DNA of 64,000 nucleotides from Microvirga arsenatis. Lineage in GTDB: Bacteria; Pseudomonadota; Alphaproteobacteria; Rhizobiales; Beijerinckiaceae. A program made the translations under genes and the position numbers. The stretch lies in assembly GCF_009910705.1 (NCBI RefSeq), contig NZ_JAAAXJ010000006.1:186001-250000 (forward strand), in the 5' to 3' direction. Each line of letters starts with the position of its first letter. Position 1 is the first letter of the stretch. The notes under the pieces are model-generated. The model was not told the DNA's origin, ran no database searches, and worked only from the letters and a program-made list of their open reading frames with translations. Shown piece after piece: positions 11,974 through 18,899 of this stretch.

Positions 11974-12846
11974 CTACATGAGAACAACACGATTTCGTCC
12001 GGCTGATTTGGCTTGGTAGAGAGCCAAGTCTGCGCGCTTGACGAGTGCATCGATGCTCTCTCCCTCCTTCCATTCGCTGACGCCGAAGCTGCAGGTGAGT
12101 CGGATTTCTCCCACTTGAGCGGCTCTGATCTGAAGATCTGCCATTCGAAGACGCAGGTCATCTGCAAGTCTGTAGGCTCCCATCCGATCCATTCGGGGAC
12201 ACAGAATGCCGAACTCCTCCCCGCCCAAGCGGCCGACGATGAGCCCGTCCTGCACGGATTCCTGTGCCGCCGCCTTCAGGGCTAGGTCGCCGACATCGTG
12301 GCCATAGCGATCATTGATGGACTTGAAGTGATCGATATCGAACATGATGAAGGAAACATGCGCGAGGCAGGGCTGCTTGCCGATGCTGTGTTGCAGGCGC
12401 TCAAAGAGCGCGCGTCGGTTGAAGAGACCCGTTAGAGGGTCAGTTTCGGCAAGCTTGATCAACTCGTTGTGCATGAAGGTCAGGCGCTCAGCCGCTCTCA
12501 ACCTTGCATGAAGCTCTTCCGGAATAGGAGGCTTCGAGATGAAATCGTCCGCTCCACTGTCGAGAGCCTCGGACAGTTTGCGGGAATTCCGCATTGACGA
12601 CATAGCGATGATGTACAGGCTTCTATGAGCCTGAGCCAGCAACCGGGCCGACCAGCAGAGTTCCAGCCCGCTGATCGGAAGAACCTCAAGGCTCGTGATG
12701 AGCCCGTTCACCTCTTCATGGGTACTGACGAAATCGAGGGCGTGCTGGGAGTCGGTAAAGCAAGAAACAATGTGACCTCGCGATGCGAGGACACTTGAGA
12801 TAACTTTCAGCGCCACACGGCTGGGATCGACAACAACGATATGCAT
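11974..12846 (-). CDS. Pseudo-receiver GGDEF protein (putative diguanylate cyclase)
   Basis: 290 residues from the ATG at 12846 (a TTG four codons upstream is also open). Residues 1-120 are a CheY-like receiver. The phospho-acceptor Asp aligns with S52 (TSLEVLPISG where D-L-x-M-P-x-x-x-G is expected), and one residue of the acidic pair is changed, while K105 is kept. Residues 135-290 are a GGDEF domain with an intact active loop GGEEF (208-212) and DIDHFKSIND metal segment. It has no RxxD inhibitory site five residues before the loop. It should make c-di-GMP, with the receiver acting as a phosphorylation-independent or protein-binding module. It is divergent from the rpfF-like gene, so a role linked to DSF signalling is plausible. 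Confidence 0.87.
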   Translation of the reverse strand: MHIVVVDPSRVALKVISSVLASRGHIVSCFTDSQHALDFVSTHEEVNGLITSLEVLPISGLELCWSARLLAQAHRSLYIIAMSSMRNSRKLSEALDSGADDFISKPPIPEELHARLRAAERLTFMHNELIKLAETDPLTGLFNRRALFERLQHSIGKQPCLAHVSFIMFDIDHFKSINDRYGHDVGDLALKAAAQESVQDGLIVGRLGGEEFGILCPRMDRMGAYRLADDLRLRMADLQIRAAQVGEIRLTCSFGVSEWKEGESIDALVKRADLALYQAKSAGRNRVVLM

Positions 12847-13149
12847 AGCCAATTTCAAAGCCCTGATCAGTCTATTCGTAAACTCCTAGAGAATTATGAA
12901 GGCTGAGGAATTTATTGAACTTTCAATGGCGGGATCAAAGCCGGGACATCCTTCAACAAGGCGTCACGAGGAGCATTGTCTGAAAAATGTGCCTTCAAGA
13001 TCGCAGATCCTCTGTTAACCATCGATTCCAATTAGGTTTACGGAACGTTAATCTCAGTTGAAAAGAGCCGCTGAAGCCTGAATAAAGAGGCAGCGGCGTG
13101 AATGATCCGAACTCGCCGCCTGTTCTATTCGGTTTGCAGGGACAAGATC
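12847..13149. promoter_or_regulatory. Divergent control region of the GGDEF and rpfF-like genes
   Basis: About 300 nt, more AT-rich than its surroundings, between two divergent genes. It must carry both promoters. No convincing -35/-10 pair or operator was identified by eye. Confidence 0.4.
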
Positions 13150-16733: not shown

Positions 16734-16766
16734 ATTGGTTGATGGCCTTCTTTGAACGATGCTGAC

Positions 16767-18899
16767 TCAAATCGTTAGGATTCCGGGCGCTTTAAGGAGA
16801 TCCTCGAAGTCCTTGGCAGGAACGGGGCGGCTGAACAGGTAGCCTTGTGCCTCATGGCAGCCTATGGCCTTGAGCCACTCCAGTTGCTGCGGTGTCTCCA
16901 CACCCTCCGCGATCATCTTGACGCCCAAACTTCCTGCAAGGCCACTGATGGCCCTGACGATTGCATCGTCCCGACTGTTGGTTGTCAGGCTTGAAATGAA
17001 TGACCGGTCGATCTTCAGCCTATCGACAGGAAAATTCTTGACATAGGTTAGCGAGGAATAGCCGATCCCGAAGTCGTCAACCGACACCTTGACGCCAAGC
17101 TTCTTGAGGCGGTTCAGGGTCTCTGTCGTTCGTCCTATATCGTCGAGGAGACTGCTCTCCGTCAGCTCAAGCTCGAGTTGGTCCGGCTCAAGACCGGTCT
17201 TTGCTAGTGTATCGGCGACTAACTGGACCAGATCCTGGCGCAGGAACTGAACCGGTGAGAGATTGACGGCGATGCGCATGGGGGGCAGACCGCGCTCACG
17301 CCAGACCATTGCCTGGGAGCAGGCTTCCCCTAGGACCCAAGCGCCGATCTCGACGATTAGGCCGCTTTCCTCTGCCAAGGGCAGGAAGACCGCAGGGGAC
17401 ACCAGCCCCACGCCCGGCTTGGACCAGCGCAACAGGGCTTCGGCGCCGACCATCTGGCCTGTCCGGAGGTCGATCTGCGGTTGATAGTGAAGTACGAGTT
17501 GCTCACGGCTCACTGCCTTGCGCAGATCCGTCTCGAGGATAAGATTGGGCTGCGCCGTAGCGTTCATCTCGGGGGAGTAGAATCTGAAAGTGTTGCGGCC
17601 GGCAGCCTTGGCGCGGTACATTGCCAAGTCGGCGAACTTGAGCAGCTTCTCGGCATCGGCGTCATCGTTGGGGCACAGTGCGATTCCGATCGTGCAGCCG
17701 ATCACGATCTCATGCCCATCGATGATGAAGGGAGTAGACAGCCTGGCAATCACGTCCTGAGCGAAAGCTTCTGCAGAATGAGATCCGTCGATGCTGGACT
17801 GCAGGATGATGAACTCGTCGCCAGAGATGCGTGCAACCATGTTTTTCTCAGTTGCCGCTTCGATCAATCTGCTGGTTACCTGCAGCAGCAACCTGTCGCC
17901 ACTCGAGTGACCGAAAGCGTCATTGACGGATTTGAACCGGTCAAGATCAACAAGGTGAAGAGCAAAGGGTTCTTTCCTGACAGTCAGTTCGAACTGCACA
18001 CGCTCGTGGAGCATTCTTCGGTTAGGAAGATCCGTCAGAGGATCGTGATATGCGATATGCCGAAGGACAGCTTCAGCCTGCTTCCGCTCGGTGATATCGA
18101 TTGAGGTCGTCAGGATGCTGGTGACACTGCCGCTTGTGTCCCGCATAGGTGTCTTTGTTGTCAGGAACATGCGACGGGTGCCGCTCTGATCGACGAGATC
18201 CTCCTCGAACGCAACCTGAGCTCTAGGCTTTTCAAAGAGAGCCTGATCAACCTTATCGGCGTAGTCTCGCTTGTTGCTTATGAGGACGTCGGCCAGTTTT
18301 TGCCCGAGCAGGCTCGTGGGGTCGGCATCGGCAAAACTGGCGTAGTGAGCGTTGACGAAGATTGCTCGCCCTTCACGATCAGTCGCGCTGACCATTGCAG
18401 GAATCGTATCGATCACCTGCGCGAGAGCCTCCTGACTGCTACGGATCAACTCCTCGTGGGAGCGCTCCTTGCGACGAAGCTCCTGTTCCAGCAGGATTGC
18501 CCTGTCCTTGATATAACGCTGGTGGCGGGAGAGCTTGAGCAGGTTTCTTGCTCGCGTCACGAACTCACAGTGATCGACGGGTGAACTGATGAAATCGGTA
18601 GCACCTGCCTCCAAGGCACGAAGACGGAAGGTTCTATCATCATAGGCAGTGATTACGATGATCGGAACATCGGTACCGTTGATGCTGTTGCGCACGTGCT
18701 GCGTAAAGGCCGCGCCGTCGAGCTCCGGCATTCGATAGTCGGTGACAATCAGATCGGGATCGTTGCTCTCAAGCCAGGTCAAAGCCTCGACCGGCCGGCT
18801 AAGAGCCTTCACGGTAATGCCTTCCTCGATCGACAAGGCCAAGCGGGAGAAGATGTTACGATTTGTACTCCGGTCATCAACGATCAGAACGAGTGCCAT
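16767..18899 (-). CDS. RpfG-like receiver fused to PAS-GGDEF-EAL
   Basis: 710 residues; GGGGGGAGC precedes the ATG. The receiver (1-125) has phospho-acceptor D54 in VTDYRMPELDG, and its linker (ALEAG..DF..P, NLLKL, RAILLEQEL) resembles RpfG closely. The usual switch lysine is replaced by Ser (SSP at 105-107). A PAS domain follows (about 155-275). The GGDEF domain has SGDEF (359-363) without a preceding RxxD, so cyclase activity is uncertain. The EAL domain has EALLRW (487-492), ELTESS, VDDFGIGYSS and KIDRSF, the full set for c-di-GMP hydrolysis. It occupies the position of rpfG, upstream of the rpfC-like gene. In place of an HD-GYP phosphodiesterase the output is EAL, so the same chemistry may be achieved by another domain. 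Confidence 0.88.
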   Translation of the reverse strand: MALVLIVDDRSTNRNIFSRLALSIEEGITVKALSRPVEALTWLESNDPDLIVTDYRMPELDGAAFTQHVRNSINGTDVPIIVITAYDDRTFRLRALEAGATDFISSPVDHCEFVTRARNLLKLSRHQRYIKDRAILLEQELRRKERSHEELIRSSQEALAQVIDTIPAMVSATDREGRAIFVNAHYASFADADPTSLLGQKLADVLISNKRDYADKVDQALFEKPRAQVAFEEDLVDQSGTRRMFLTTKTPMRDTSGSVTSILTTSIDITERKQAEAVLRHIAYHDPLTDLPNRRMLHERVQFELTVRKEPFALHLVDLDRFKSVNDAFGHSSGDRLLLQVTSRLIEAATEKNMVARISGDEFIILQSSIDGSHSAEAFAQDVIARLSTPFIIDGHEIVIGCTIGIALCPNDDADAEKLLKFADLAMYRAKAAGRNTFRFYSPEMNATAQPNLILETDLRKAVSREQLVLHYQPQIDLRTGQMVGAEALLRWSKPGVGLVSPAVFLPLAEESGLIVEIGAWVLGEACSQAMVWRERGLPPMRIAVNLSPVQFLRQDLVQLVADTLAKTGLEPDQLELELTESSLLDDIGRTTETLNRLKKLGVKVSVDDFGIGYSSLTYVKNFPVDRLKIDRSFISSLTTNSRDDAIVRAISGLAGSLGVKMIAEGVETPQQLEWLKAIGCHEAQGYLFSRPVPAKDFEDLLKAPGILTI

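What the first reader, a model, noticed from the sequence alone, without database searches (positions are those of the whole stretch)
12846..18899. Complete DSF (rpf-type) quorum-sensing locus in an alphaproteobacterial background
An RpfF-like synthase (both catalytic Glu residues present, 20 apart) faces an RpfC-like sensor kinase with the same input-domain block (GNGFRFGIWYL), kinase, receiver and HPt. A receiver-output protein precedes rpfC in the position of rpfG. The convergent rpfG-rpfC versus rpfF arrangement matches the classical xanthomonad locus, but the surrounding genes look like Hyphomicrobiales. DSF systems are best known in gamma- and betaproteobacteria, so a full locus here would extend the family and could be an ancient transfer.
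Basis: partly seen in the sequence, partly recalled or inferred. Interest (0 to 1): 0.85.

Follow-up and report, generated by a model that had tools for sequence, protein, structure and literature searches.

The report
DSF signalling locus with swapped output
A Microvirga-type bacterium carries a gene trio resembling the fatty-acid "DSF" cell-to-cell signalling system of xanthomonads, but its third protein keeps only the receiver part of the classical RpfG and carries a different predicted c-di-GMP enzyme, so the signal would likely reach the same messenger through an exchanged output part.

Summary
The window (a Microvirga-type genome) encodes an RpfF-type synthase (13102-14145 +), an RpfC-type hybrid kinase (14244-16733 -) and a receiver protein in the rpfG position (16767-18899 -). 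RpfF groups with characterised RpfFs, apart from the genome's own crotonases; RpfC has the RpfC input domain, kinase, receiver and HPt. The third protein is not RpfG as defined: it is REC-PAS-GGDEF-EAL, and no HD-GYP domain was found in the genome. Yet its receiver is of the RpfG lineage: it is the genome's best match to an RpfG, and in 11 of 11 chosen genomes its best match is the slot protein beside rpfC. The slot holds one receiver lineage with exchanged outputs: HD-GYP in 12 loci from outside the class, PAS-GGDEF-EAL in this order, PAS-histidine kinase in 12 of 17 further alphaproteobacterial stretches. EAL and GGDEF catalytic residues are kept, so it is predicted to be a phosphorylation-controlled c-di-GMP phosphodiesterase. 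Microvirga-type RpfC differs at three of five residues that xanthomonad RpfC needs for DSF, so the ligand may differ. The trio co-diverges and is widespread, with no sign of a recent xanthomonad transfer. New variant of a known kind; no chemistry was tested.

The parts
13102..14145 (+). rpfF-like DSF-type synthase of the crotonase fold (347 aa as called; probable start 13150 gives 331 aa). Catalytic Glu188 and Glu208.
   Evidence: NCBIfam PRK08788 366 bits (cut-off 177), RpfF model 208 bits (cut-off 550, not reached); PDB best four are 5fus, 6dgn, 3m6m, 7zq7, RpfF/DfsA entries; AF2 model pLDDT 84.8, first 12 Foldseek rows all RpfF/DfsA chains, TMt 0.90-0.95, next rows ordinary hydratases at E 3e-14 and weaker; tree.
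14244..16733 (-). rpfC-like hybrid sensor kinase: membrane input domain (aa 1-165), HisKA-HATPase (180-405), REC (561-674), HPt (734-815)
   Evidence: Pfam; input domain aligned with RpfC of other loci; H190, D609, H766 invariant in 32 sequences; AF2 pLDDT 80.9 with a helical bundle at residues 15-164; only full-length match in the genome.
16239..16733 (-). RpfC input domain; residues matching X. campestris RpfC R15/D17/S18/E19/Q22 are S11/D13/R14/E15/M18
   Evidence: Alignment and motif table; essential residues from PMC5391125 (passages); correspondence made here by the spacing R-x-D-S-E-x-x-Q.
16767..18899 (-). rpfG-position response regulator, REC-PAS-GGDEF-EAL (710 aa)
   Evidence: Pfam; 33 bases upstream of rpfC on the same strand; tested catalytic residues complete in 39 of 39 slot proteins, window included.
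18552..18890 (-). receiver domain of the slot protein (phospho-acceptor Asp54), same lineage as the RpfG receiver
   Evidence: Reciprocal best matches, receiver trees, identities.
18078..18410 (-). PAS domain, shared with alphaproteobacterial REC-PAS-HK slot proteins, not with the RpfR PAS
   Evidence: Linker-PAS BLASTP 103-124 bits and 37-41% to the top four REC-PAS-HK proteins (median of 10: 78 bits), 23-25 bits and 19-22% to RpfR proteins L171, L172, L174.
16824..18053 (-). GGDEF (17592-18053) and EAL (16824-17528) domains with the tested catalytic residues
11974..12858 (-). REC-GGDEF protein divergent from rpfF; a neighbour, not a conserved member
   Evidence: A REC-GGDEF gene was found in the window only, of 94 distinct loci classified; L069 has a GGDEF protein without a detected REC beside rpfF.

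Best explanation
This is an RpfF/RpfC-type (DSF-family) signalling locus whose RpfG-lineage receiver is joined to PAS-GGDEF-EAL instead of HD-GYP, so that sensing of a likely DSF-type fatty acid by RpfC would change c-di-GMP through a predicted EAL phosphodiesterase. Inferred steps: RpfF makes a cis-2-unsaturated fatty acid; RpfC binds it at its short N-terminal/membrane input domain and autophosphorylates; phosphate moves His190 - Asp609 - His766 - Asp54 of the slot protein; phosphorylation, perhaps tuned by the PAS domain, changes the balance of the EAL (degrading) and GGDEF (making) domains, most likely lowering c-di-GMP at high cell density as RpfG does. Shown here: gene content, domain make-up, kept catalytic residues, receiver kinship, and co-divergence of the three proteins.
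For: RpfF identity. RpfC identity: (36 RpfCs of this type form one group, 94, not starred). Slot protein: REC-PAS-GGDEF-EAL; no PF13487 (HD_5) match in a 99.95% complete draft genome. Receiver kinship: an RpfG from L168 finds the slot receiver first in the window's genome, 88.9 against 52 bits; the slot receiver, searched in 11 genomes that I chose for having a slot gene (7 HD-GYP, 4 PAS-HK), finds the slot protein beside rpfC first in 11 of 11, 72-140 bits, next best at most 60 except a second receiver of 96 bits in G703; trees put all slot receivers on one side of a branch, 99/99 with 31 slot and 45 other receivers, 97/73 with 43 and 47. Intact enzymes: Asp54, GGDEF and the EAL residues tested kept in 39 of 39. 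Co-divergence in 38 trios: identity correlations 0.949, 0.942, 0.973, in 0 of 999 permutations as high. In the own genus 21 of 37 genomes have RpfF; 19 of these 21 have RpfC and the slot protein beside it; of the other two, L058 is cut by its contig end and L052 has RpfF with a GGDEF-EAL protein and no RpfC.
Against: No chemical or biochemical test. Three of five residues that X. campestris RpfC needs for DSF are changed (R15 to S, S18 to R, Q22 to M), so the ligand may not be DSF. The RpfF cut-off of NCBIfam is not reached, though L175, 618-620 bits to the Burkholderia and Cronobacter enzymes 5fus and 6dgn, also scores only 182 there. RpfF also occurs without RpfC: of 39 genomes of the order, 15 have a GGDEF-EAL protein and no RpfC in the stretch read, one has a slot protein 7 kb off and no RpfC found, 4 have none of these; 5 loci outside the class (L183-L187) have RpfC but no slot protein in the stretch. 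Only 28 of the genome's 75 receiver places served as background in the receiver trees. A GGDEF-EAL protein can be a cyclase, a phosphodiesterase or a receptor. Correlated divergence also follows from shared descent alone.
Confidence: 0.78

Rival explanations
1. Classical, complete DSF locus with an ordinary RpfG, transferred from a xanthomonad.
For: Same gene order and convergence as in xanthomonads (PMC4504480, passages); RpfF and RpfC homologous.
Against: Slot output is GGDEF-EAL; no HD-GYP found in the genome; RpfC and slot GGDEF-EAL of this type form their own groups and 37 of 38 RpfFs fall in one group away from the HD-GYP loci.
Confidence: 0.04
2. An RpfF/RpfR-type system: the PAS-GGDEF-EAL protein itself binds the fatty acid through its PAS domain, as RpfR of Burkholderia does, and RpfC is accessory.
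For: Same PAS-GGDEF-EAL domain order as RpfR; 37% identity over 546 residues to L172, whose PAS matches the solved RpfR domain 6dgg; the xanthomonad kinase RpfS binds DSF by a PAS_4 domain (PMC4504480, passages) and the slot protein's PAS matches PAS_4.
Against: Linker-PAS only 23-25 bits and 19-22% to RpfR proteins; RpfR GGDEF-EALs are a separate group, 100*; the N-terminus is a receiver, not the RpfF-binding part of RpfR.
Confidence: 0.1
3. The kinase of this lineage has shifted to another ligand, so RpfF and RpfC form a related but non-DSF signalling pair with the same wiring.
For: S-P-D-R-E-x-E-M in 16 of 17 Microvirga-type RpfCs (the other has Glu for the Asp), against R-x-D-S-E-x-x-Q in 11 of 15 input-domain rows of HD-GYP loci; S18A and Q22A cut the DSF response in X. 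campestris.
Against: The Asp (16 of 17) and the invariant Glu are kept; in P. [quoted passage not shown]
Confidence: 0.25
4. RpfF here is an enzyme of ordinary fatty-acid metabolism and the two-component pair is an unrelated neighbour.
For: RpfF is a crotonase-fold enzyme; it occurs without RpfC in other genomes.
Against: RpfF, RpfC and slot protein stand together in 38 distinct loci in two gene orders, with correlated divergence.
Confidence: 0.05

Closest known systems
RpfF/RpfC/RpfG system of Xanthomonas (DSF)
   Same: RpfF fold and glutamate pair; RpfC input domain, kinase, receiver, HPt; RpfG-lineage receiver; rpfG-rpfC operon convergent to rpfF
   Different: Output is PAS-GGDEF-EAL instead of HD-GYP; three of five DSF-sensing residues of RpfC changed; RpfF 36-37% identical to the X. 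campestris structures in the Foldseek alignment (species of 3m6m recalled); no rpfH between the two operon genes
RpfF/RpfR system of Burkholderia and Cronobacter (BDSF)
   Same: RpfF homologue; PAS-GGDEF-EAL in the output protein
   Different: Here a receiver replaces the RpfR N-terminal part, the PAS is of another lineage, and an RpfC kinase is present
PA1396 (P. aeruginosa DSF sensor kinase)
   Same: RpfC-type five-helix input domain with the conserved Glu (PMC6536496, passages seen)
   Different: Signals through an orphan HPt protein to a DNA-binding regulator (PMC4504480, passages seen)
Leptospirillum rpfFCG cluster
   Same: Non-xanthomonad rpf cluster
   Different: HD-GYP RpfG and one-directional gene order (PMC8357829, passages seen)
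Alphaproteobacterial RpfF-RpfC-REC-PAS-HK loci found here (L251-L262, L159, L162)
   Same: RpfF, RpfC, same receiver and PAS lineage
   Different: Output is a histidine kinase (H-box pattern in 12 of 12 of L251-L262; Pfam run on L252, L255, L258 only), not GGDEF-EAL

Membership tests
RpfF / DSF synthase | Crotonase fold nearer to characterised RpfF than to enoyl-CoA hydratases | tested here: met
   PDB best four are RpfF/DfsA at 171-179 bits, next 63 bits; structure; tree 100* apart from 7 of the genome's other crotonases
RpfF / DSF synthase | Two catalytic Glu, 20 residues apart | tested here: met
   E188 and E208, invariant in 28 sequences
RpfF / DSF synthase | NCBIfam RpfF equivalog cut-off (550 bits) | tested here: not met
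   208 bits. Of 10 proteins run, only L178 reaches it (583); L168-L170, beside HD-GYP RpfG, score 356-370, and Burkholderia/Cronobacter-type L175 and L172 score 182 and 184, so it delimits a narrow subgroup, not the function
RpfF / DSF synthase | Makes a cis-2-unsaturated fatty acid | not testable with these tools
   Needs LC-MS
RpfC | RpfC-type membrane input domain followed by kinase, receiver and HPt | tested here: met
   AF2 shows six main helices at 15-164, and a simple hydropathy scan flags four regions, so the number of membrane passes (five in print) is not settled
RpfC | Five residues needed for DSF sensing (R15, D17, S18, E19, Q22) | tested here: not met
   Only D17 and E19 kept; E19 is the one said in print to be kept in all homologues
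RpfG | Receiver plus HD-GYP | tested here: not met
   REC-PAS-GGDEF-EAL; no HD_5 match in the genome
RpfG | RpfG-lineage receiver in the operon with rpfC | tested here: met
   (operon inferred from the 33-base gap)
RpfR | RpfR-type PAS and RpfF-interacting N-terminus with GGDEF-EAL | tested here: not met
   PAS 23-25 bits to RpfR, receiver at the N-terminus, separate GGDEF-EAL group
c-di-GMP phosphodiesterase (EAL) | Catalytic residues E, N, E, DD, K, E, Q (set recalled) | tested here: met
   All present in the window and in 39 of 39 slot proteins; activity itself not testable here

The most novel reading that the evidence does not exclude
The rpf locus has a plug-in output slot: one receiver lineage, wired to RpfC and RpfF, has been fitted at two joints with three different effectors - HD-GYP, PAS-GGDEF-EAL and PAS-histidine kinase - so that alphaproteobacteria run an old, widespread and undescribed branch of DSF-type signalling in which the same signal input drives c-di-GMP by another enzyme or feeds a second kinase cascade, and in which Microvirga has retuned its sensor to a signal of its own.
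Probability: 0.5. Interest if true: 0.78.

Novelty: new variant of a known kind. Interest (0 to 1): 0.62.

Why it matters
Two core ways of hearing DSF are in print: RpfC with RpfG (HD-GYP), and RpfR (PAS-GGDEF-EAL) (PMC4504480, passages seen). This locus combines the RpfC input with an EAL-type output on the RpfG receiver, and related loci carry a kinase there. It gives a natural experiment on what the pathway conserves (synthase, sensor, receiver) and what it exchanges (the output), and it extends DSF-type signalling to many alphaproteobacteria, for which my ten paper searches showed no description. The changed sensor residues make ligand specificity directly testable.

Tried and rejected
Considered and rejected: ordinary enoyl-CoA hydratase; an unlinked RpfG elsewhere (no HD-GYP; best RpfG match is the slot receiver); slot protein as an RpfR; the REC-GGDEF neighbour (11974-12858) as a member (in 1 of 94 loci). 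Promoter and terminator scan gave numbers at chance level (3 found, 3.3 expected; 4 found, 5.0 expected). A first motif script for the EAL residues was too strict (for example Q found in 1 of 39); it was replaced by alignment columns (39 of 39). L044 was first labelled as this type by the script, then moved to the HD-GYP group, because an HD-GYP gene adjoins its rpfC; L039 and L046 were dropped as duplicates of L052 and L142 before the trees. Of 13 crotonase matches in the genome, 7 went into the RpfF tree. Of the genome's 75 receiver places, the 30 best were fetched and, without the locus's own two, 28 gave background rows. Three RpfC rows (L041, L155, L179) were left out of the RpfC tree for lack of the H-box pattern. 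The RpfF tree is weak in its deep forks, with long rows (L163, L177, L164); L164 falls outside the main group although its slot protein is of this type, and the label of this type needs 6 changes there. The bootstrap had not settled. Of the 62 phylum genomes with RpfF, neighbourhoods of 30 were read (24 fetched held from other calls); the other 32, mostly of one family code (f81), were not.

Papers: searches (ten in all) listed no paper that, by title or shown abstract start, describes a DSF locus in Alphaproteobacteria; Microvirga with 'diffusible signal factor' gave 0. Many hits were seen as listings only. Two that looked nearest were opened: PMC10673610 (Methylobacterium with Xylella) has DSF and RpfF in an introduction sentence and three references only, and PMC3715506 has Alphaproteobacteria only in a reference. 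PMC4618731 uses RpfG as a family name in a table for Azospirillum. Only open-licence PMC papers are held, so this is not proof of absence. Passages only were seen of PMC4504480, PMC8357829, PMC6536496, PMC5391125, PMC4618731, PMC10673610 and PMC3715506.
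Full report
WHAT IS THERE. The window is G000:C56:186001-250000 of a 5.05 Mb, 99.95% complete draft genome whose nearest named relatives are Microvirga. Between 13102 and 18899 lie three genes: an RpfF-type crotonase (+), and on the other strand a REC-PAS-GGDEF-EAL protein followed 33 bases later by an RpfC-type hybrid kinase. The kinase and synthase genes converge, 98 bases apart. A REC-GGDEF gene (11974-12858 -) lies divergently beyond rpfF; no other of 94 distinct loci classified has one in the stretch read.

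RpfF. Its best matches in the PDB are four RpfF/DfsA sequences (171-179 bits; ordinary hydratases 63 bits and less). It passes NCBIfam PRK08788 (366 against 177 bits) and misses the RpfF equivalog cut-off (208 against 550); of 10 proteins run, only L178 meets that cut-off (583 bits), while L175, which matches 6dgn and 5fus at 620 and 618 bits, scores 182. An AF2 model (pLDDT 84.8) has RpfF/DfsA chains in the first 12 rows of its PDB matches. In a tree of 94 RpfF-like proteins and 7 other crotonases of the same genome, the crotonases split off at 100* and the window sits in a 19-row set of Microvirga-type RpfFs (99*).

RpfC. Pfam finds HisKA, HATPase, receiver and, just below its cut-off, HPt. 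[quoted passage not shown] H190, D609 and H766, the three phosphorelay residues, are invariant in 32 sequences. No other place in the genome matches this input domain over its length (one kinase match begins at residue 114, the others at 159 or later).

THE SLOT PROTEIN. The gene in the place of rpfG encodes REC-PAS-GGDEF-EAL. The genome has no match to the HD domain of HD-GYP proteins (PF13487), a family that fits the RpfG of L168 and L178 at 133-136 bits. Its receiver is nevertheless of the RpfG lineage. An RpfG from L168 has it as best match in the window's genome, 88.9 bits against 52 for the next. In the other direction the receiver was searched in 11 genomes chosen for having a slot gene, 7 with HD-GYP and 4 with PAS-HK: in 11 of 11 the best match lies in the slot protein beside rpfC (positions checked), with 72-140 bits; the next best is at most 60 bits except in G703, where a second receiver reaches 96. 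In a careful tree, 31 slot receivers stand apart from 45 others (40 of them from this genome) at 99/99; with 12 PAS-HK receivers and L266 added and L141 left out, 43 slot receivers stand apart from 47 others at 97/73, and the 31 of the PAS-GGDEF-EAL and PAS-HK kinds form a set at 100/99 (bootstrap not settled). Background was partial: 28 of the genome's 75 receiver places.

TWO JOINTS. BLASTP by segment (duplicates L039 and L046 included) shows a mosaic. The receiver (residues 1-125) is shared with PAS-HK proteins (48-60% in the eight rows shown) and RpfG (40-45% in the top four of 12). The linker and PAS (118-280) are shared with PAS-HK proteins (37-41%, 103-124 bits in the top four REC-PAS-HK; median of the 10 is 78), not with RpfR (19-22%, 23-25 bits). 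The GGDEF-EAL part is shared with other GGDEF-EAL proteins (46-47% to the top four, which stand near rpfF in loci without rpfC). So exchange has happened at the receiver/output joint and at the PAS/output joint. The direction is not known because the trees have no root. GGDEF-EAL parts of 39 such proteins form one group (89, not starred), RpfR another (100*). L266, from another part of the class, has the same REC-PAS-GGDEF-EAL make-up; its receiver lies nearest to two PAS-HK receivers, while its GGDEF-EAL part is nearest to this type, so the number of exchange events is open.

PREDICTED ACTIVITY. Phospho-acceptor Asp54, the GGDEF signature (SGDEF in the window) and the EAL residues E487, N546, E578, E581, D608, D609, K629, E665, E668 and Q685 are kept in 39 of 39 slot proteins of this type, window included; the product-inhibition site RxxD is absent in the window. 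This supports a phosphodiesterase, possibly with cyclase activity; it does not prove either.

SENSOR RESIDUES. In X. campestris RpfC, R15, D17, S18, E19 and Q22 are needed for the DSF response, and S18T is tolerated (PMC5391125, passages). Loci with HD-GYP show R-x-D-S-E-x-x-Q in 11 of 15 input-domain rows (three proteins give two rows each). The window has S-P-D-R-E-Y-E-M; 15 of 17 Microvirga-type rows, window included in the 17, have S-P-D-R-E-H-E-M and one has Glu for Asp. Of the 22 other rows of this type (one duplicate), 9 have R-P-D-S/T-E-H-E-M, 13 have Ser or Thr at place 18, and none has Q at the last place (16 M, 5 I, 1 L). PAS-HK loci keep Q in 11 of the 12 found. P. aeruginosa PA1396 senses DSF without much of this N-terminal part (PMC6536496, passages), so the changes suggest, but do not show, another ligand.

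DISTRIBUTION. At E 1e-40, RpfF is in 39 of 297 genomes of the order, 19 of 289 of the class and 62 of 398 of the phylum, own genome included each time. In the own genus, 21 of 37 genomes have it at 280 bits or more, and 19 of the 21 have the whole trio together. Of the 39 in the order, 17 have RpfC plus this slot protein beside it; one (L138) has a slot protein 7 kb away at the stretch end and no RpfC found; 15 have a GGDEF-EAL protein and no RpfC in the stretch; 2 have RpfC with PAS-HK; 4 have none of these. All 19 genomes of the class scan were read; of 17 stretches newly fetched for it (16 genomes), 12 have RpfC with PAS-HK (in L251 the PAS-HK gene stands apart on the other strand), 1 has this type and 4 have only RpfF, two of them cut by contig ends. 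Of the 62 in the phylum, 30 were read. Outside the class, 12 loci have RpfC with HD-GYP (four from named records: a Methylotenera MAG, two Burkholderiales MAGs and a gammaproteobacterial MAG), and 5 (L183-L187) have RpfC with no slot protein in the stretch. My note gave 22 of 37 for the genus; 21 is the recount.

GENE ORDER AND DESCENT. The convergent order of the window is that of xanthomonads (PMC4504480, passages) and of 21 other loci of this type, three of them from the own genus (L069-L071); the remaining 16, all Microvirga-type, have rpfF divergent with the slot gene between rpfF and rpfC in 16 of 16 (the label had missed two because of overlapping frames). I infer that the window keeps the common order and the main Microvirga group changed it. 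Across 38 trios the identities of the three proteins rise and fall together (0.949, 0.942, 0.973). This fits joint inheritance and gives no sign of recent arrival from a xanthomonad.

WHAT IS SHOWN AND WHAT IS INFERRED. Shown: genes, domains, residues, kinship of the receiver, distribution. Inferred: product of RpfF, ligand of RpfC, phosphotransfer, direction of the c-di-GMP change, age of the system, and the physiological outcome.

LITERATURE. Ten searches (listed under Tried and rejected) showed no description of this arrangement; the two core perception routes in the review are RpfC-RpfG and RpfR (PMC4504480, passages). JGI annotation already names many of these proteins 'DSF synthase', so the synthase family in such genomes is not unnoticed by annotation pipelines; the exchanged output and the receiver kinship are what I could not find in print.

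Noticed in passing
L251-L262 (also L159, L162): RpfF-RpfC loci of other Alphaproteobacteria whose rpfG-slot protein is REC-PAS-HK with an H-box: the RpfC response regulator is itself a histidine kinase, so a second phosphorelay probably follows.
   Followed up: partly
L052 (same contig as L039, Microvirga roseola, record titled as a plasmid scaffold): An rpfF 67% identical to the window's lies on a contig labelled plasmid beside a GGDEF-EAL gene, with no rpfC within the 14 kb read.
   Followed up: no
L262: Two RpfC-type kinases flank one rpfF (6410-8944 + and 10077-12425 +).
   Followed up: no
L044: A gammaproteobacterial MAG locus has rpfF between an rpfC-HD-GYP operon and a histidine kinase plus REC-GGDEF-EAL pair; its REC-GGDEF-EAL receiver is not of the RpfG lineage (31 bits to the window's slot receiver).
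   Followed up: partly
L178-L180: RpfC proteins with two successive RpfC-type input domains in one frame.
   Followed up: no
L047, L158, L160: A second, shorter RpfF-like protein (233-250 aa) lies a few kb from rpfF, beyond a GGDEF-EAL gene.
   Followed up: no
window 27732-30026: A second GGDEF-EAL protein (764 aa, with a long N-terminal part) about 9 kb from the locus.
   Followed up: no
window 22084-23715: Subtilase-family protease-like gene (Peptidase_S8, 30 bits) near the locus.
   Followed up: no
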